From Thermoleophilum album (GTDB lineage: Bacteria > Actinomycetota > Thermoleophilia > Solirubrobacterales > Thermoleophilaceae): DNA of 64,000 nucleotides. Shown here in pieces: positions 34,947-49,512 of this stretch. Under the pieces are notes generated by a model. It did not search any database. It worked only from the letters and a program-made list of their open reading frames with translations, and was not told the DNA's origin. A program made the translations under genes and the position numbers. The stretch covers positions 248,001 to 312,000 of the forward strand of contig NZ_FNWJ01000001.1 of NCBI RefSeq assembly GCF_900108055.1, written 5' to 3'. How positions within the stretch are numbered: position 1 is the first letter of the stretch; every line of letters starts with the position of its first letter.

Positions 34947-35633
34947 TTACGCCACCTGCGGGGAGCTAGACCCCTCTCCCGGCGATGAGCTCGGGGCACC
35001 GCCATGGGCGCTCCCGTTGCCGTGCACGGTGGGCGTCCCGCCCGACCCGTCCGGCTGCTCCGACTGTCCGCTCCCCTCGCTGGCGTGGGCCCGCTGCGAG
35101 ACGCACTTACCGAAGGCGTTTCGCTTGTTGCGGTTGGTCCCGTAACGCTCGCTGAAGGCCTGTGGATCCTGTGCGCGCTCGGCGGCGCACTGCTGCGCGG
35201 CATTTTGCTCCGCCTGGATCTCTTCGCGATCCTGAGCGTCCTGCTCCTTGAGCAGTGCGCGCACCTTCGTCGACACGCACTTGCCGAGCGCATTGCGCCG
35301 GTTGCGGTTGGTGCCGTACTTCTTGAGGAAAGCCTGCGGATCCTGTGCGCGCTCGGCCTTGCATTCCTGGACGGCGTTGCGGACGGCAGTTGCCCGCTCA
35401 CTGGCGGCTTCCCGCGCACGCACCTTGATGCAGTGCCCCAGTCCGAGCCCGCCGTACTTCAGACGGAACGCTTCGCGCGAGGCGTCGGTCGTGCCGCGCT
35501 CCGCCTTGCACTCCCGCTTGGCCTCCCGCACGTCGTGCTTGGTCGGCTTCGGCCCGCCGGCTAGCGCCGCCGGAGCGAACACCAAGCACAGCGCTGCTCC
35601 TGCGGTACCTGCTCGCAAAAGCTTCGGTCTCAT
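34947..35633 (-). CDS. Secreted protein with three Cys-containing DPxAFxxKYGTN repeats
   Basis: 228 residues. A signal peptide (MRPKLLRAGTAGAALCLVFA) with a PAALAGG cleavage area. Then three repeats: a first degenerate unit (RECKAERGTT, then REAFRLKYGGLGLGHCIKV), then two close copies QECKAERAQDPQAFLKKYGT + NRNRRNALGKCVS and QQCAAERAQDPQAFSERYGT + NRNKRNAFGKCVS. Each unit has two Cys spaced about 27 residues, so disulfides are likely. The C-terminus is Ser/Gly/Pro rich. Helical, highly charged, exported. No family known to me; similar repeats appear in related actinobacteria by recollection only. Confidence 0.7.
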   Translation of the reverse strand: MRPKLLRAGTAGAALCLVFAPAALAGGPKPTKHDVREAKRECKAERGTTDASREAFRLKYGGLGLGHCIKVRAREAASERATAVRNAVQECKAERAQDPQAFLKKYGTNRNRRNALGKCVSTKVRALLKEQDAQDREEIQAEQNAAQQCAAERAQDPQAFSERYGTNRNKRNAFGKCVSQRAHASEGSGQSEQPDGSGGTPTVHGNGSAHGGAPSSSPGEGSSSPQVA

Positions 35634-35844
35634 CTCGCTCTACCTCTCAGATCGCTTGCGTCGCTCGACCTTTCGTTTGCAGGAACGCGGGGCGCGGCGC
35701 GAGGTTCGCGAGTTTCAACAAAGTTTCCGCCTTCGTGCCCGTCTTCCGTGAACCTGACGGCCGTCCAAACGTTTCTGATGATGTGAAGAGCAGCTCTCGC
35801 GCCGCCGATATGACCGTGGGGCGCCCAGCAGCGCGCGGCTTAGC

Positions 35845-37596
35845 ATGGGCTGCGGGGGCAGTCGCGTCGCCGTGGACGGTCGAACGACAGCAGTCAGCGA
35901 ACGCGAGGCCCCGTCTGACGACGCTCGGACGGGGAACGGTTGGCGAACCCGCGAGCAGCACACCGGCCCGCCCCCGCCAAGCCGACCCGGGGTCCGACCG
36001 CGAGCGAGCCGCTTGTTGCTGGCCCGACTCGGGGATGAGCAGCTTGCGCGGCGCGTACGTCGCGGCGACGAGCGCGCCTTCGAGATCCTCTTCGAGCGCC
36101 ATCTGCCCGGTCTGCTGGCGTTCTGTCGCCACCTCACTGGCACGCGCGAGGACGCCGAGGACGCGGTCCAACACGCGTTCGCAGCCGCCTATCGCGAGCT
36201 GCGCTCGGGCAGCGAGCGCCAACTCGCCGTCAAGCCCTGGCTCTACGCGGTGGCGCGCAACCGCTGCATCTCGATCCTCCGTGAACGGCGACCGAACACG
36301 GTGTCCGCAGAGACCGACGAGCCACGGGCGGACGACGACACCGCCGCTCAGCGGGAGGACGTGCGTGAGCTACTCGCCGACCTGCGTCAGCTTCCCCACG
36401 ACCAACGCGCGGCATTGCTCCTGTTCGAAGTCGCGGACATGTCGCAGCGCGAGATCGCGGAAGCCCTCGGAGTGGAGGTCGGGCGGGTGAAAGGCCTTGT
36501 TTTCCGCGCACGCTCGACGCTCCTCAAGATGCGCGAGGCCCGGGAGCGCCCCTGCGCCGAGGTGCGCGAGGAAATCGCGATGCTGCGCGGCGGATCGCTG
36601 CGGCGCAGCTCGATCGCTCTGCACCTGCGCAGCTGCGCGGGCTGTCGCGAGTTCAGAGAGCGCGTCGCCAAACAGCGGACGCTGCTGTCGCTGGCCTTGC
36701 CGGTGGCGATCACGCCGGCACTCAAGGCCTCACTCGCCTCCGCTGTGGCCGGCGGTACCAGCGGCAAGCTCGGCGGTGCCGCCGCCGCTGGCGGTAGCGC
36801 GGCAGCAGCGGAAGCCACCTCCGGCGCGGGGGTGGTTGCCGGCAGCACCGCGGTCGCGGGTAGTGCGCCAATTGCCGGCAGCGCCGCTGTCGCGGGTGTC
36901 TCCGCTGGCGGCGCGGCCGCCACAGCGGCGAAGGTTTTGGTCGCGGCCGCGCTCGTCGGCGGCGGTGCGATCGGCGGCAAGGCAGCGGTCGACCGGGTCA
37001 CGCAGCCGACCCACCCGGCAAACGCCGGGGCTTCGCACAGCGCCACCGAGCGAACCGGCGGGTCCCGCCTGCCGGCGACCGCGCTCGGCGGCACCGGCAG
37101 CGAGCGACCGCACGCGCAGGGCGCGCGCAAGCGGTCGCACCCTGCGCGCGGCGACAAGGCCGCCGCGCGCGGTCGACCTGACAAAGCTCCGCGAGATGAC
37201 CGCACACCGAGCGAGGGGGTCCGGGGGCCAGCCAGGAAGGGACAAGCGGCGGGCAACGGCACCGCCAAAGCTGAGTCGAAAGCCGCGCGCCGGCAGCTTA
37301 AGTCGAGCCGCCGCGCGCGCTCGACCGTGCCGCGCAAGCGCGTGTTCGGCGGCCCCAAGCGGACGCGCAGCACGGGCACCGCGCAGCGCCCCACGAACGG
37401 CGGTACGAGTAGCTCGAGTGGAGGTGGCAAAGCCGGTGGAAACGCGGGCGCGTCGGCGGGTACGACGACCCCCGCACCGCCGACTCTCGAATCGCCGCCC
37501 AGCACTCCCAGCGGCCGATCGAGCGGCGGCAAGACAAAGCTCGGAGGCAACGACTCGGCTGGCACACTGGGCGAGGTCGACGGCACGAACCGCTAG
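35845..37596 (+). CDS. ECF sigma factor fused to a zinc anti-sigma-like motif, membrane segment and extracellular tail
   Basis: 583 residues, far above the usual ~200 for ECF sigmas. Sigma region 2 is about 65-145 (GDERAFEILFERHLPGLLAF, EDAEDAVQHAFAAAYREL, WLYAVARNRCISIL), region 4 about 172-230 (LPHDQRAALLLFEVADMSQR, EIAEALGVEVGRVKGLVFRA). Then H260-x3-C264-xx-C267 (HLRSCAGC), the zinc anti-sigma (ZAS) motif. Next is an Ala/Gly hydrophobic stretch with a likely membrane helix at ~357-379, then a 200-residue Ser/Gly/Lys/Arg/Thr tail outside. This looks like sigma and anti-sigma in one chain, tied to the membrane. The ATG at 35845 is uncertain, since the first ~55 residues are low complexity; a TTG lies at 36013. 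The 211-base gap before it is shared with a divergent gene. Confidence 0.75.
   Translation: MGCGGSRVAVDGRTTAVSEREAPSDDARTGNGWRTREQHTGPPPPSRPGVRPRASRLLLARLGDEQLARRVRRGDERAFEILFERHLPGLLAFCRHLTGTREDAEDAVQHAFAAAYRELRSGSERQLAVKPWLYAVARNRCISILRERRPNTVSAETDEPRADDDTAAQREDVRELLADLRQLPHDQRAALLLFEVADMSQREIAEALGVEVGRVKGLVFRARSTLLKMREARERPCAEVREEIAMLRGGSLRRSSIALHLRSCAGCREFRERVAKQRTLLSLALPVAITPALKASLASAVAGGTSGKLGGAAAAGGSAAAAEATSGAGVVAGSTAVAGSAPIAGSAAVAGVSAGGAAATAAKVLVAAALVGGGAIGGKAAVDRVTQPTHPANAGASHSATERTGGSRLPATALGGTGSERPHAQGARKRSHPARGDKAAARGRPDKAPRDDRTPSEGVRGPARKGQAAGNGTAKAESKAARRQLKSSRRARSTVPRKRVFGGPKRTRSTGTAQRPTNGGTSSSSGGGKAGGNAGASAGTTTPAPPTLESPPSTPSGRSSGGKTKLGGNDSAGTLGEVDGTNR

Positions 37597-38728: not shown

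Positions 38729-38755
<27 letters not shown>
37676..38755 (+). CDS. GHMP kinase, D-glycero-D-manno-heptose 7-phosphate kinase-like
   Basis: 359 residues; ATG at 37676 or 37685. Motifs: RAPLRLALGGGGTDLPAYFR, EVPPGTGLGSSGAFTVCTLK (ATP-binding GLGSS), VGRSVGKHDQYAAAFGG and ALMGAGGGGFLLCYAP (GAGGGGF). These fit HddA-type heptose-1-phosphate kinase steps of GDP-heptose synthesis, and resemble related fucose kinases. Gram-positive-type actinobacteria use such heptoses in surface glycans. The 3' end overlaps the GH1 gene by 27 bases. It stands alone in this window, so its pathway partners are elsewhere. Confidence 0.85.
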
Positions 38756-40426
<1,671 letters not shown>

Positions 40427-40433
40427 GAGATTG

Positions 40434-41606
40434 TCAGAACGTACCAGACTCCCTACCCACCGCGCTAGGGCCGTGCAACGACCGCTCGAGCACGCTCGTT
40501 CCGAGATCGCAAGCCCGGGGAACCCCACAGAGTGCCAACGACAGATCGAACTCGTCGATCAACAGCCGCAACACCCGTTCGACCCCAGCCGCGCCAGCAA
40601 CCGCTAGCCCCCAGAGCACCGGCCGTCCCACCAGCACCGCCCGCGCGCCGAGCGCCAATGCCTTGAGCACGTCGGTACCGCGACGGATGCCGCCGTCGAC
40701 CAAGACGTCGACCTCCTCGCCGACCTCTTCGACGACCTCCGGGAGCGCGTCGGCGGCCGCGCGAACACCATCGAGCTGACGACCCCCGTGGTTCGAGACG
40801 ACCACCGCCGCTGCGCCGCTAGCGATCGCGCGCCGCGCGTCTTCCGCCGTCAGCACTCCCTTGACCACCACCGGCAGGTCGCTGGTGCCGACCAGCTCCT
40901 CGAGGTCGCGCCACGTTAGCGAAGCGTCAAGAAGCTCGCCGATCGCGCGCATGTCGAGGCGCGCATCGGACTCGCCAACGGCCGCCGCCAGGCTCGGCAC
41001 CTCCAGTGCCGGCAGCGCGAAGCCGGTGCGCAGATCGCGCTCGCGCCGACCGAAGTAGGGCACGTCGACGGTCAGGAAGAGAGCACTGAAGCCGCTTGCT
41101 GCAGCCTCCTCGCAGAGCGCGCGGGTGACGCCGCGATCCCGGAACACGTAGACCTGGAACCACCGCGTCGCCTCCGGTGCGGCCTCAGCTATCTCGCTTG
41201 GCCGCGCCGTCGCGAGCGTCGACAGGCAAAGGGGGGCCTGCGCACGGGCCGCACCCGCCGCCGTCGCCTTCTCACCATCGGGATGAGCGAGACGGTGGAA
41301 CGCCGTCGGCGCCACGCAGATCGGGTGTGCGAGACGCTGGCCGAGGAAAGTCGTGGACGTATCACGCCGCGAGACGTCGACGAGCATCCGTGGCCGCAAA
41401 CGCAGGCGTGCCCACGCCGCCTCGTTGTCGCGCAGCGTGATCTCAGCGCCCGCACCGCCCGCGTAGTAGCCGAAGGTGCCGGGGTCAAGACGTTCCCGCG
41501 CGAGCTCCGCGAACTCCGCGAGCGTCGCCGGCAGCGGCGGCTGCTGCGGCGTCGACGCTCGTTGGCGGCGCCCGTCTCGCTCCTCGCTTCCCATTTGTCC
41601 GCTCAC
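40434..41606 (-). CDS. FMN-dependent alpha-hydroxy-acid oxidase/dehydrogenase family protein
   Basis: 390 residues. TIM-barrel FMN family marks: FGYYAGGAGAEITLRDNEAA, PICVAPTAFHRLAHPDGEKA, CLSTLATARPSEIAEAAPEA, ALFLTVDVPYFGRRERDLR, and catalytic SNHGGRQLDGVRAAADALPE, then VDGGIRRGTDVLKALALGAR. This is the lactate/glycolate oxidase type (lactate 2-monooxygenase, mandelate dehydrogenase). Substrate unresolved. The start overlaps the stop of the YhaN-like gene by 4 bases, so it is the last but one gene of a long minus-strand run. Confidence 0.92.
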   Translation of the reverse strand: MSGQMGSEERDGRRQRASTPQQPPLPATLAEFAELARERLDPGTFGYYAGGAGAEITLRDNEAAWARLRLRPRMLVDVSRRDTSTTFLGQRLAHPICVAPTAFHRLAHPDGEKATAAGAARAQAPLCLSTLATARPSEIAEAAPEATRWFQVYVFRDRGVTRALCEEAAASGFSALFLTVDVPYFGRRERDLRTGFALPALEVPSLAAAVGESDARLDMRAIGELLDASLTWRDLEELVGTSDLPVVVKGVLTAEDARRAIASGAAAVVVSNHGGRQLDGVRAAADALPEVVEEVGEEVDVLVDGGIRRGTDVLKALALGARAVLVGRPVLWGLAVAGAAGVERVLRLLIDEFDLSLALCGVPRACDLGTSVLERSLHGPSAVGRESGTF

Positions 41607-45628: not shown

Positions 45629-46378
45629 TTAGCGGACGTTGAAGGTGTTGTTGCCGCGAACCTTCGGGGTGCGTCGCTTCACGACGTCGAAGTCGTAGAA
45701 GCGACCCGGCGACTTGCCCTTCTGTCCGAACCCGACCCCTGCGTCCTGAAGGAGCTTGACGGCGGTGTCGATCTGCGTAAACGCGTAGCGCATAAACACG
45801 CGGTCGTTTCCGAGCTTGCCGAGCGACTGGCGCGCGAGCGCCCGGTGCACGGCCTCGACGCCCATGAACTCCGCGGCGTAACGGGCGTTCTCACCCTGAC
45901 CAGCGTTGCCGAACACGGTCGTCGCGATCAGATATGCGTTGATGAACACCTGGTCGCCGAACTCAAGCGTGGTAAGCAGCCCCTTGCGGCTGGCGAACAC
46001 GGCGTCGGGCACCCAGATCTTCTTGGTCAGCTCCTTGCCGCCGATCTTGCGCAGCACCTTGTAGTGCTCGAGCTCCTGCTGTGCGGCCGCCGCGACGTTG
46101 CGCCGCGTCACGCGGTCGAGACCCCTTACGCGACGCGCACCCTCGGTGTTGATGATCGTCGCCAGCACCTCAGCGGTGGCGGCGATGTTGAGGATCTTCT
46201 GCGGGTCGTTCTGGGCGGTGATTGCCGCTACCGCGCGATCGTCGGCGACGAGCCCGAGCAAACCGAGGCTGCCGAAGGTCGCTGCTGCACCCTTGAGGAT
46301 GCCGCGCCGCGTGCTCGCGGTCTTGTCCTGCTCCTGCTCGTCGATGACCCGGTAAGCGAGCGAAATCGCTTCGGACAT
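45629..46378 (-). CDS. Tat-signal ferritin-like domain protein
   Basis: 249 residues. A twin-arginine signal: STRRGILKG, followed by a hydrophobic stretch (AAATFGSLGLLGLVA) and a charged break. The mature part is helical and ferritin-like: ILNIAATAEVLATIINTEGA, QQELEHYKVLRKIGGKEL (E-xx-H), EFGDQVFINAYLIATTVFGN, ARYAAEFMGVEAVHRALARQ (E-xx-H). These E...ExxH pairs suggest a di-iron site. It belongs to the PF13668-type group by pattern. The gene is in the same block as tatA-tatC-sigK-rskA, 191 bases after rskA, so Tat export of this protein is expected. Confidence 0.85.
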   Translation of the reverse strand: MSEAISLAYRVIDEQEQDKTASTRRGILKGAAATFGSLGLLGLVADDRAVAAITAQNDPQKILNIAATAEVLATIINTEGARRVRGLDRVTRRNVAAAAQQELEHYKVLRKIGGKELTKKIWVPDAVFASRKGLLTTLEFGDQVFINAYLIATTVFGNAGQGENARYAAEFMGVEAVHRALARQSLGKLGNDRVFMRYAFTQIDTAVKLLQDAGVGFGQKGKSPGRFYDFDVVKRRTPKVRGNNTFNVR

Positions 46379-46569: not shown

Positions 46570-47319
46570 CTAGGAGCCGCGTTCGAACACGACAAGGGGC
46601 GGAGAGGTCGGCTGCACGCTTCCGCCCGCCGGTTCCTGGGTGATCATCAGGCGGTCACGGGGCTTCAGGCTCACCGGCACCTCGACCGCCCCATCGGACG
46701 CTACGAACATGGGTTCCGCCGGCCTCGGCGGGCTGCCCGGCGACTGCACCCAGACCTCGTAGACGCCGCTCTCGGGCGGTCGCGGCAAACCCCGCACCTC
46801 GATGCGAACGCTGCGCTCGTGGACGGTTGCGCGCGCTTGCGCACGACGGGCGACGGTTGGGTCGGTGATCCGACCGACGAGCTCCTGACCCCGCCGCTTC
46901 GCTCCGATCTGGCCCTCGAGGACCGTACCCAGACCGAACCCAACGGCGAGCATCACGAGCAGCACGCCGGCCAGCGCGAGCGGCCTGGCCGCCGGGATGA
47001 AGAGCTCGCGTAGGCGGCGCTTGGCCGACTCCGGCTGGTCGGCGGAGGCTCCGGCGGCGCGCAGCAGGCGCGCCTCCGCTCGCACCTCGCTTAGCACGCG
47101 CTCGCGCAGACGCCCTGGTGGCAGGCGTGGCGGTACCGCCTCGGCCAGCGCGCTGGCGGTAGCGATCAAGGCACCGGCTTCGGCGCAGCAGCGCTCGCAG
47201 GTCTCGCGGTGGCGCTCGACCCGTTCGCGCTCGCTCGCGGTCAGCGCCCCCAGCGCCCACGCGGCAAGCGTCTCCCGAACCCAGTCGTGTTCTCGTGTCG
47301 CGCTATCCACCGTGCTCAT
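46570..47319 (-). CDS. rskA: RskA-like anti-sigma factor with zinc motif
   Basis: 249 residues. The N-terminal zinc anti-sigma domain has HRETCERCC (HxxxCxxC). A single membrane helix (LALAGVLLVMLAVGFGLGTV) follows at ~113-133. The C-terminal extracytoplasmic domain has the RskA_C pattern (VYEVWVQSPGSPPRPAEPMF and RDRLMITQEPAGGSVQPTSP). It should bind and inhibit the adjacent ECF sigma factor until proteolysis releases it. It follows sigK after 15 bases on the same strand, the usual order for this pair. Confidence 0.92.
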   Translation of the reverse strand: MSTVDSATREHDWVRETLAAWALGALTASERERVERHRETCERCCAEAGALIATASALAEAVPPRLPPGRLRERVLSEVRAEARLLRAAGASADQPESAKRRLRELFIPAARPLALAGVLLVMLAVGFGLGTVLEGQIGAKRRGQELVGRITDPTVARRAQARATVHERSVRIEVRGLPRPPESGVYEVWVQSPGSPPRPAEPMFVASDGAVEVPVSLKPRDRLMITQEPAGGSVQPTSPPLVVFERGS

Positions 47320-47334
47320 CCGATCGGCACACCT

Positions 47335-47958
47335 TCATCGGGGCTCGAGCACCGCCTCGAACGCTCGCAGTTTCTCCAGCGCGAGGCGCATGCGACCTTT
47401 CACCGTTCCCACCGGAGCGCCGAGCAGCTCGGCGATCTCGGTGTGCGTGAAGCCGCCGTAGTAAGCCAGCTCCACGACTTTGCGCTGGTCCTCCGGTAGG
47501 GCCGCGAGTGCCTGACCCACCGCCCGCGCCCGCTCGCGGCGTAGCGTCTCGACTACCGGATCCTGCTGCTCCTCGGCGCTCGCGCGTTCGGGATCGCGAC
47601 CCGCACCGGCCTCCGGATCGAGCTCGTCGCTCGAGCGAAGACGTTCCTGAACCGCGCGCCTACGCAGCAAGTCGATCGCCCGGTTGTGGACGATCCGCAG
47701 CAACCAGGTGCGGACCGTGCCACGGCGTGCATCGTACGCCGAGGCGCCGCGCCAGGCCGAAAGCATCGCGTCTTACACGATGTCCTCGGCAACCTCGGTG
47801 CTGCCGGCAATCCGGTAGGCCAGCGAGTAAGCGGCCTGAGCGTGACGGTCGTAGATGACCTCGAAAGCCTCCGCAACTCCGCGCGCGGCGGCCTCGATCA
47901 GCTCTTCGTCGGCCAGCCGCTCCCAGCCGCTCGATTTGGGCGGAAAAATCCTCATCAC
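47335..47958 (-). pseudogene. sigK: ECF sigma factor SigK-like gene, interrupted by an in-frame TAA
   Basis: Read through, this is a normal ~206-residue ECF sigma: region 2 (ADEELIEAAARGVAEAFEVI, YDRHAQAAYSLAYRIAGSTE), then VAEDIV, stop, DAMLSAWRGASAYDARRG, TWLLRIVHNRAIDLL, and region 4 (LPEDQRKVVELAYYGGFTHT, EIAELLGAPVGTVKGRMRLA). The stop is TAA at 47773-47775 (codon 62), where homologues have Gln (EDIVQDAFLSAW), so one C to T change or read error explains it. A downstream ATG (47766) would give a region-2-truncated protein. The start overlaps the tatC stop by 4 bases, and rskA follows. Alternatives are stop readthrough or sequencing error. Confidence 0.85.
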
Positions 47959-48983
47959 GCGGAGCCTCCGGCGCTCGCCTCGGCGAGCCGCGCCGCGCGG
48001 GCCCGGCGGCGTTCGACGATCCGGCTGAGCACGATCCCCAGCTCGAACAGCAACACCATCGGCACCATTTCGATCAGCGTCGTGATCGGGTCGGTTCCGG
48101 GCAATAGTGCCGCGAGTACCGCGAGCACGACGATCGCGATCCGCCGATTACTGCGCAGCTGCTCTGAGCTCAGTACGCCGAGGGCGACCAGCCCCACCAT
48201 CGCGAGCGGTAGTTGGAACAGAAGCCCGGTAGCTAGCGCGGTGATCAGTACGAAGTGGTAGTAGCTACTCGCTTGCACGAGTGCGTCGAAAGCACCAGCG
48301 TTGAACTGCTGGAGGAACGCCACCGCGGTCGGCAACACGACGACGTAGGCGAACGCAACGCCGGCGACGAAAAGCGCCGGGGCGCCGACCACCAGCAGGC
48401 GTATGGCGCGGCGCTCATTCGGCGCGAAGGCCGGTGCGATGAACGCCCACGCCTGGTAGAGCAGCACCGGCAAGGTGAAGAGCAGCGCGAACTGGAAGGC
48501 GACGAGCAAGGTTTGAGTGAACGGCTCACCAAGACCGAGCGTCACCGGGCGCGTGTCTTGATCGCGAGCGGCTAGCCGTCTCGCCGCCGATCGCGTCTCG
48601 CGCACCGCATCGCTCAAGGCCTGCCGCTGACTCGCCGAAAGCGACCCGGCGCGCGCCAGTTCGGCGAGTGCTCGCGCCTGCCCGTCGAGCGCCTCCCGAA
48701 TTGTGCGGCGGAGCCGCTCCTCGCGGCCACTAAGTGAGGTCGGCGCCCGCTGGGCCTTGTTGGCCGCTCGGGCAAGCGGCTGGTTGAGCACCGACAGCAG
48801 AGGTCTGCTCTGCCACAGGCACACCGCGAACGCCAGGGCGAGCGCGCACAGGCAAACGATCAGGCGCGTGCGCAGCTCGTCGAGGTGCTCGACGAGCGTC
48901 AGGCGCTCGTCGTGCCCGACCGGCTTGAGAACCTTTTTCAACGTACCCCGCGAAGACACGAGCCGCGATTGGCGACGTCCCAA
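47955..48983 (-). CDS. tatC: Twin-arginine translocase subunit TatC with enlarged first periplasmic loop
   Basis: 342 residues versus ~250 for typical TatC. LTLVEHLDELRTRLIVCLCA is the conserved N-terminus and first helix. Between helix 1 and helix 2 (LLVAFQFALLFTLPVLLYQA) there are about 110 residues, including a ~65-residue charged helical insert (GREERLRRTIREALDGQARA and following). EPFTQTLLVAFQFALL, WAFIAPAFAPNERRAIRLLV, AFAYVVVLPTAVAFLQQFNA and LLPGTDPITTLIEMVPM match TatC. Start is a TTG; GTG at 48959 and TTG at 48941 are alternatives. It receives Tat signals in the membrane. Overlaps sigK. Confidence 0.9.
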   Translation of the reverse strand: MGRRQSRLVSSRGTLKKVLKPVGHDERLTLVEHLDELRTRLIVCLCALALAFAVCLWQSRPLLSVLNQPLARAANKAQRAPTSLSGREERLRRTIREALDGQARALAELARAGSLSASQRQALSDAVRETRSAARRLAARDQDTRPVTLGLGEPFTQTLLVAFQFALLFTLPVLLYQAWAFIAPAFAPNERRAIRLLVVGAPALFVAGVAFAYVVVLPTAVAFLQQFNAGAFDALVQASSYYHFVLITALATGLLFQLPLAMVGLVALGVLSSEQLRSNRRIAIVVLAVLAALLPGTDPITTLIEMVPMVLLFELGIVLSRIVERRRARAARLAEASAGGSA

Positions 48984-49027: not shown

Positions 49028-49306
49028 TCAGGCAGCGCCCGCGGCTCCCCGCTCGGAGCTGCTGGCCGTGGTTCTCGCCACCTTTTCAGTGTTGGCGGTA
49101 GGTGGCGTGTGGATCTCCCTGGCCGTCGCCAGCTCCTCTTCCAGCTCGACGGCCTCGCCGTCGTGCGTGTCGGAGCGCAGCGACTGGCGGAACTCGCGGA
49201 TCCCGCGTCCAACCGAGCGCCCGACCTCCGGCAGCTTGCGCGGCCCGAGCACGAGCAAAGCGATGATCAAGACCACGATGAGTTCCATCGGTCCGATGTT
49301 TGGCAT
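49028..49306 (-). CDS. tatA: Twin-arginine translocase subunit TatA
   Basis: 92 residues from the ATG at 49306 with an AGGGGGG site upstream. N-terminal helix and amphipathic region are classical: MPNIGPMELIVVLIIALLVL, GPRKLPEVGRSVGRGIREFR. The FG-type break is LGPRKLP. It forms the transport pore complex with TatC, 44 bases downstream. The acidic, Thr/Ala-rich tail is typical. First gene of the tatA-tatC-sigK-rskA run. Confidence 0.93.
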   Translation of the reverse strand: MPNIGPMELIVVLIIALLVLGPRKLPEVGRSVGRGIREFRQSLRSDTHDGEAVELEEELATAREIHTPPTANTEKVARTTASSSERGAAGAA

Positions 49307-49512
49307 GTTTCGACCCCCCTGACTGCTGGTTGGCTGCGATGCGCACCTAGCGCATCTGCGCCCTTCGCCTTTGCTTGCGCGCGGCGCACCCGTTCGGATC
49401 AGAGCTTGGCAGGTCGCGAGCCGAAAAGCGACCGGCCCACTGATCCGCTTGTAACCGGCCGACGTAGGCGGTAGCGGGAGGAAGTTCTCGACGCAACCCA
49501 AGGAGGTAGCTT

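What the first reader, a model, noticed from the sequence alone, without database searches (positions are those of the whole stretch)
35845..37596. One-chain sigma/anti-sigma: ECF sigma fused to ZAS motif, membrane helix and outer tail
Seen: regions 2 and 4 of an ECF sigma, then HxxxCxxC at 260-267, a hydrophobic segment at ~357-379 and a ~200-residue low-complexity tail. Known: ECF factors are normally controlled by a separate anti-sigma, and ECFs with C-terminal extensions exist. Inferred: the sigma factor may be held at the membrane by its own anti-sigma domain and released by cleavage of the extracellular tail, which needs no partner gene.
Basis: partly seen in the sequence, partly recalled or inferred. 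Interest (0 to 1): 0.72.

Follow-up and report, generated by a model that had tools for sequence, protein, structure and literature searches.

The report
Sigma factor with built-in anti-sigma domain
This gene encodes a bacterial transcription switch (ECF sigma factor) joined in one chain to its probable zinc-binding inhibitor, a weak membrane anchor and a disordered tail; the general design is known from Streptomyces, but this is a separate, large family in a little-studied actinobacterial class, with a self-matching promoter and a likely secreted target.

Summary
Window 35845-37596 (+) is one open 583-aa frame: ECF sigma regions 2 and 4, a four-ligand zinc motif C237-x22-H260-x3-C264-x2-C267, an Ala/Gly-rich linker, a weak hydrophobic segment (363-382) and a 201-residue disordered tail. 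The zinc motif is kept in all 57 non-redundant fusions collected, and the fusion occurs in every listed genome of the same order, often in several copies. The zinc domain matches the fused ZAS of Streptomyces ECF52 (hhalign 95.5%), so sigma fused to anti-sigma is well supported. The membrane step is weaker: hydrophobicity is not above local composition, but a Lys-bounded uncharged segment is conserved family-wide. Proteolytic release is untested.

New here: a promoter AACCT-N14-CGTT precedes this gene and most close relatives (9/13 versus 0.09 expected). The same promoter type precedes genes for a secreted Cys-repeat protein (9/15 versus 0.05-0.7 expected), which lies beside the fusion in six genomes. 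This suggests autoregulation and a direct target. The kind is known (ECF48/52/53, IutY); this is a new variant, distinct from ECF52 by its sigma lineage and by lacking the NPCBM domain.

The parts
35845..37596 (+). ECF sigma-ZAS-hydrophobic segment-tail fusion, 583 aa (ATG start without a clear Shine-Dalgarno; alternative in-frame GTG at 35872)
36088..36291 (+). sigma region 2 (residues 82-149)
   Evidence: Pfam PF04542 E 2e-14
36382..36522 (+). sigma region 4 (residues 180-226)
   Evidence: Pfam PF08281 E 6e-12
36553..36645 (+). ZAS-like zinc motif C237-x22-H260-x3-C264-x2-C267
   Evidence: H/C/C in 30/30 and C or H at the fourth ligand in 30/30 relatives; hhalign 95.5% to the ECF52 ZAS
36646..36750 (+). 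continuation of the ZAS helix with the family-conserved Pro286 and an LK element, predicted as a long helix
36931..36990 (+). putative single membrane segment: K363, uncharged Ala/Gly/Val-rich residues, conserved Gly374; relatives often have Glu at the C-terminal end (Ala381 here)
   Evidence: K in 39/47 and G in 44/45 aligned relatives, almost no D/E in columns 338-380; identity falls from 0.52 to 0.14 right after it
36991..37593 (+). disordered tail, 201 residues, net +24, no Pfam domain
35751..35773 (+). ECF-type promoter AACCT-N14-CGTT in front of the fusion gene (predicted autoregulation)
35684..35706 (-). second copy of the same promoter, divergent, in front of the secreted Cys-repeat gene
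34947..35633 (-). divergent gene, 228-aa predicted secreted protein with Cys-containing repeats (ECKAERAxDPxAF..KYGTNxNxRNAFGKCVS); probable target
   Evidence: beside the fusion in 6 genomes of 3 genera, with the same promoter type

Best explanation
It is a self-inhibited ECF sigma factor. Shown by sequence: sigma2 and sigma4 are followed at a fixed distance by a ZAS-type zinc domain, a conserved charge-free segment and a disordered tail, and the gene carries an ECF-type promoter shared with its close relatives and with a neighbouring secreted-protein gene. Inferred: the ZAS domain folds back on sigma2/sigma4 and blocks RNA polymerase binding; the conserved segment anchors the chain in the membrane (N-in, tail out); an envelope signal acting on the tail or segment triggers proteolysis (S2P-type proteases are encoded), releasing a sigma-containing fragment that transcribes its own gene and the secreted Cys-repeat protein. 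My estimates by step: fusion and ZAS assignment 0.93, autoregulation 0.75, membrane anchoring 0.65, release by proteolysis 0.5.
For: Sigma regions. Four zinc ligands conserved, including a C-to-H swap, in a 30-member alignment; 57 non-redundant fusions all with HxxxCxxC. Constant sigma-to-ZAS spacing, the His 200-201 residues after the sigma start in nearly all. ZAS profile matches the ECF52 ZAS (95.5%, E 1.4e-8) and, more weakly, the RskA-type anti-sigma in the same window (76%). A second fusion type in the same genome passes the Pfam zf-HC2 cut-off. ECF52 proteins from Streptomyces read here have the same order of parts: sigma, ZAS, Ala/Gly linker, TM, Pro-rich tail. The segment is conserved with K at its N side and often E at its C side. 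M50/S2P proteases are encoded. ACCT-N14-CGTT upstream in 9/13 of its own subclade versus 0.09 expected, spacing peak only at N16, and AAC-N16-CGT[TC] upstream of secreted-repeat genes in 9/15 versus 0.05-0.7 expected.
Against: Segment hydrophobicity is marginal and not above local composition in this protein or in 47/48 relatives; AlphaFold gives coil at pLDDT under 40 there. The tail is strongly positive (+24), against the positive-inside rule for an outside tail, though tail charge varies from -33 to +35 in relatives. Pfam zf-HC2 does not hit this protein and hits only 6/25 family members (best E 0.0019). AlphaFold does not fix the sigma-ZAS arrangement (pTM 0.56). No protease or signal is identified.
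Confidence: 0.6

Rival explanations
1. The whole protein is cytosolic. The fused zinc domain is a direct redox or metal sensor (like the zinc sites of RsrA/ChrR, or the Cys-rich extension of CorE), and the Ala/Gly segment and tail are a flexible, possibly nucleic-acid- or RNAP-binding extension.
For: Weak segment hydrophobicity, low AlphaFold confidence there, strongly basic tail in this genus, zinc ligands intact.
Against: A charge-free segment with boundary Lys and Glu is among the best conserved pieces after the ZAS, with a sharp drop right behind it. ECF52 proteins have an unmistakable TM at the same place (KD 2.5-2.7). The tail varies in charge and composition, unlike a nucleic-acid-binding domain.
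Confidence: 0.25
2. The extension does not inhibit. As reported for ECF41/ECF42 extensions, it is needed for activity or binds a ligand or partner, and the membrane segment only localises the protein.
For: In ECF41/42 parts of the C-terminal extensions are required for activity (PMC8999054).
Against: The fused domain is a ZAS by ligands and profile, not SnoaL or TPR. For ECF52 a truncation lacking ZAS and TM kept partial function and activated its own expression (PMC5826349).
Confidence: 0.1
3. Ordinary ECF sigma with a decaying, non-functional C-terminal read-through.
For: Tail is low complexity; one relative (L033, G006) stops right after the zinc motif.
Against: 42 of 43 relatives with complete C-termini keep 225-356 residues from the zinc-motif His to the stop, and all keep the zinc ligands.
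Confidence: 0.03

Closest known systems
ECF52 sigma factors (SCO4117 of Streptomyces coelicolor)
   Same: One chain: ECF sigma, zf-HC2/ZAS, Ala/Gly-rich linker, TM segment, Pro-rich or disordered tail; autoregulation proposed for SCO4117 (PMC5826349)
   Different: Sigma domains fall in a separate clade. No NPCBM carbohydrate-binding domain. TM much weaker (KD 1.8 versus 2.5-2.7). Several paralogues per genome, whereas SCO4117 is the only ECF52 member in S. coelicolor (PMC5826349).
ECF48 and ECF53 groups
   Same: Described as actinobacterial ECFs with C-terminal ZAS plus one or two TM helices, expected to be released by proteolysis (PMC8999054)
   Different: Group models were not available here, so membership is open.
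IutY of Pseudomonas putida (ECF243)
   Same: Sigma and membrane anti-sigma in one chain, activated by Prc/RseP proteolysis (PMC8999054)
   Different: Iron-starvation cell-surface signalling in a Gram-negative; that context was not searched for here.
ECF sigma / RskA-type pair in the same window (46570-47877, -)
   Same: ZAS (zf-HC2) plus single TM next to an ECF sigma
   Different: Two genes, strong TM, RskA_C extracellular domain.

Membership tests
ECF sigma factor superfamily | Sigma70 region 2 and region 4 without region 3 | tested here: met
   Pfam r2 and r4_2 above cut-off; TIGR02937 sigma70-ECF E 5e-25
Zinc-binding anti-sigma (ZAS) domain | Hx3Cx2C plus an upstream fourth ligand | tested here: met
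   C237/H260/C264/C267; 30/30 relatives keep H/C/C and a C or H fourth ligand
Zinc-binding anti-sigma (ZAS) domain | Profile similarity to known ZAS/zf-HC2 | tested here: inconclusive
   hhalign to ECF52 ZAS 95.5%, to RskA-type 76%; Pfam zf-HC2 not hit by this protein, weakly by 6/25 relatives
Zinc-binding anti-sigma (ZAS) domain | Zinc binding and inhibition of sigma | not testable with these tools
   needs biochemistry; AlphaFold does not fix the domain arrangement (pTM 0.56)
ECF52 | Order of parts sigma-ZAS-TM-disordered or Pro-rich tail | tested here: inconclusive
   sigma, ZAS and tail met; TM weak
ECF52 | Carbohydrate-binding (NPCBM) domain at the C-terminus | tested here: not met
   no Pfam hit here, and in 9 relatives' tails only one sub-threshold collagen-repeat match; Streptomyces ECF52 controls hit NPCBM
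ECF52 | Sigma domain in the ECF52 clade | tested here: not met
   ECF52 plus a Kribbella protein form a clade (support 100) apart from this family (84); quick tree with weak deep branches
ECF48 / ECF53 | Match to the group-specific sigma model | not testable with these tools
   the reclassification paper and its models are not held
IutY/ECF243 | Fused anti-sigma working with an outer-membrane TonB-dependent receptor | not tested
   receptor not searched for

The most novel reading that the evidence does not exclude
A one-gene envelope-signalling pathway. The membrane-tethered sigma with its built-in anti-sigma is released by cleavage, switches on itself and a dedicated secreted Cys-repeat protein, and that secreted protein feeds back as ligand, protector or sensor of the same tail. 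The family has spread by paralogy through the class Thermoleophilia, with promoter specificities that diverged between subclades.
Probability: 0.12. Interest if true: 0.65.

Novelty: new variant of a known kind. Interest (0 to 1): 0.42.

Why it matters
It shows that sigma/anti-sigma fusions are not rare oddities of Streptomyces and mycobacteria but a common ECF design in another actinobacterial class, with several paralogues per genome. The predicted promoter and target give a direct, simple test of how such fusions are switched on. Fused pairs cannot exchange partners, so the subclades offer natural material for studying sigma/anti-sigma co-evolution and promoter-specificity change (AAC-N16-CGTT in one subclade, AAC-N16-TGT in its sister).

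Tried and rejected
Pfam zf-HC2 on the ZAS region alone gave no hit. A PDB profile search with the ZAS alignment gave only a weak RsiW match (E 0.5) among unrelated chains. Foldseek and VIA-align matched the sigma part only, so the ZAS part is barely tested by them. Membrane-insertion free-energy estimates used a scale re-implemented from memory and are not relied on. The 2021 ECF reclassification paper is not held. Of the 11 exact promoter matches in the genome, several lie in coding DNA or precede no clear gene, so no wider regulon is claimed. The row GL050 labelled no_ZAS in the tree is my labelling error: it is the cut end of paralogue L002. Chance occurrence of HxxxCxxC was rejected because of family-wide conservation. 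A read-through or frameshift artefact was rejected because 42/43 complete relatives are open.

Full report
WHAT IS THERE. The frame 35845-37596 (+) encodes 583 residues without a stop. Pfam finds sigma70 region 2 (82-149) and region 4 (180-226), and NCBIfam the ECF superfamily model. The window lies in a 2.2-Mb genome. Named relatives are Solirubrobacterales, Patulibacter and Thermoleophilaceae, so the host is most likely an actinobacterium of class Thermoleophilia.

ZINC DOMAIN. Thirty relatives were aligned. H260, C264 and C267 are invariant. A fourth ligand, C237, is Cys in 29 and His in one (L014), the exchange expected of a zinc ligand. The set grew to 57 non-redundant fusions, all with HxxxCxxC, nearly all with the His 200-201 residues after the sigma start. 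Pfam zf-HC2 misses this protein and only weakly touches 6/25 relatives. A profile-profile comparison with the fused ZAS of Streptomyces ECF52 proteins gives 95.5% probability, E 1.4e-8; with the RskA-type anti-sigma encoded in the same window 76%. AlphaFold predicts confident helices after sigma4 but does not fix how they pack on the sigma domains (pTM 0.44 and 0.56).

MEMBRANE SEGMENT. Taken alone the segment is weak: mean hydropathy 1.78, against 2.4 in the window's RskA-type protein, and no better than shuffles of its Ala/Gly-rich surroundings; only 1/48 relatives beats its shuffles at p under 0.05. AlphaFold leaves it unstructured. But across 47 relatives this block is among the best conserved after the ZAS: Lys in 39/47 at its start, Gly in 44/45 near its end, then Glu in half, almost no other charge, and identity falling from 0.52 to 0.14 directly behind it. 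ECF52 proteins have a clear TM in the same position. I read it as a weak single TM, N-in, with moderate confidence.

TAIL. In 42 of 43 relatives with complete C-termini, 225-356 residues run from the zinc-motif His to the stop. The tails carry no Pfam domain above cut-off and range in charge from -33 to +35. The tail of this protein is strongly basic, which counts somewhat against an outside location.

DISTRIBUTION. All 33 genomes of the same order listed in the survey have matches; weaker matches spanning sigma4 and ZAS occur in other families of the class. The own genome has four fusions: this one, C1:372k, C1:947k, and C1:840k, the last of another type and over the zf-HC2 cut-off. A sigma tree places the family in one clade (support 84, with paralogue L003 and the L036 type outside it) and ECF52 in another; deep branches are weak. 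M50/S2P proteases are encoded.

PROMOTER AND TARGET. Upstream of this gene is AACCTGACGGCCGTCCAAACGTT (35751-35773). In its sigma subclade ACCT-N14-CGTT occurs in 9/13 upstream regions against 0.09 expected. Over all relatives AAC-N-CGT[TC] peaks only at spacing 16: 14 regions, shuffle mean 2.3, maximum 8. The sister subclade instead has CAAC-N15-GTGT (17/41 versus 0.2). A second site (35684-35706, -) faces the divergent gene 34947-35633, a predicted secreted protein (leader judged by eye) with Cys-containing repeats and no Pfam family. That gene lies beside the fusion in six genomes of three genera (G000-G003, G070, G179). Its relatives carry AAC-N16-CGT[TC] upstream in 9/15 against 0.72 in shuffles (AAC[CT]T-N14-CGT[TC]: 9 against 0.05), with the peak only at spacing 16, including copies not linked to the fusion. 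AAC/CGT is a general ECF signature (own knowledge), so another ECF could also read these sites.

COMPARISON WITH THE KNOWN. Actinobacterial ECF48, ECF52 and ECF53 are described as sigma plus ZAS plus TM fusions expected to be freed by proteolysis, and IutY is the experimentally characterised case (PMC8999054). SCO4117 (ECF52) has sigma, zinc finger, TM, Pro-rich region and carbohydrate-binding module; a truncated form retained partial function and activated its own expression (PMC5826349, PMC8999054). On anatomy the present family works like these. It is not ECF52: no NPCBM and another sigma clade. ECF48/53 membership could not be tested.

VERDICT. Observation confirmed; interpretation partly supported.

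Noticed in passing
window 46570-47319 and 47335-47877 (-): A canonical two-gene ECF sigma / RskA-type anti-sigma pair (RskA_C and zf-HC2 both over the Pfam cut-off), a natural contrast to the fusion 9 kb away; used here as a control.
   Followed up: partly
window 45629-46378, 47955-48983 and 49028-49501 (-): Around that pair lie, judged by eye, a ferritin-like protein with a twin-arginine-like leader and apparent TatC and TatA genes, suggesting a Tat export neighbourhood.
   Followed up: no
window 34947-35633 (-): Secreted repeat protein with paired cysteines (ECKAER...KYGTNxNxRNAFGKCVS), no Pfam family, found in 15 of 41 related genomes and often preceded by the AAC-N16-CGTT promoter.
   Followed up: partly
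L036 (G000:C1:838423-841527, -): A second, divergent sigma-ZAS-tail fusion type in the same genome, with zf-HC2 over the Pfam cut-off and a very long branch in the sigma tree.
   Followed up: partly
L033 (G006:C42, -): The one relative whose frame stops right after the zinc motif; decay, frameshift or assembly error not resolved.
   Followed up: partly
upstream regions of the sister subclade (e.g. L085, L017, L031): A different conserved ECF-type promoter, CAAC-N15-GTGT, in front of the sister fusions, suggesting a change of -10 specificity between subclades.
   Followed up: partly
window 39534-39556 (-): A third exact AACCT-N14-CGTT match lies inside the coding frame of a glycoside-hydrolase-like gene (38729-40528, -); probably chance.
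   Followed up: no
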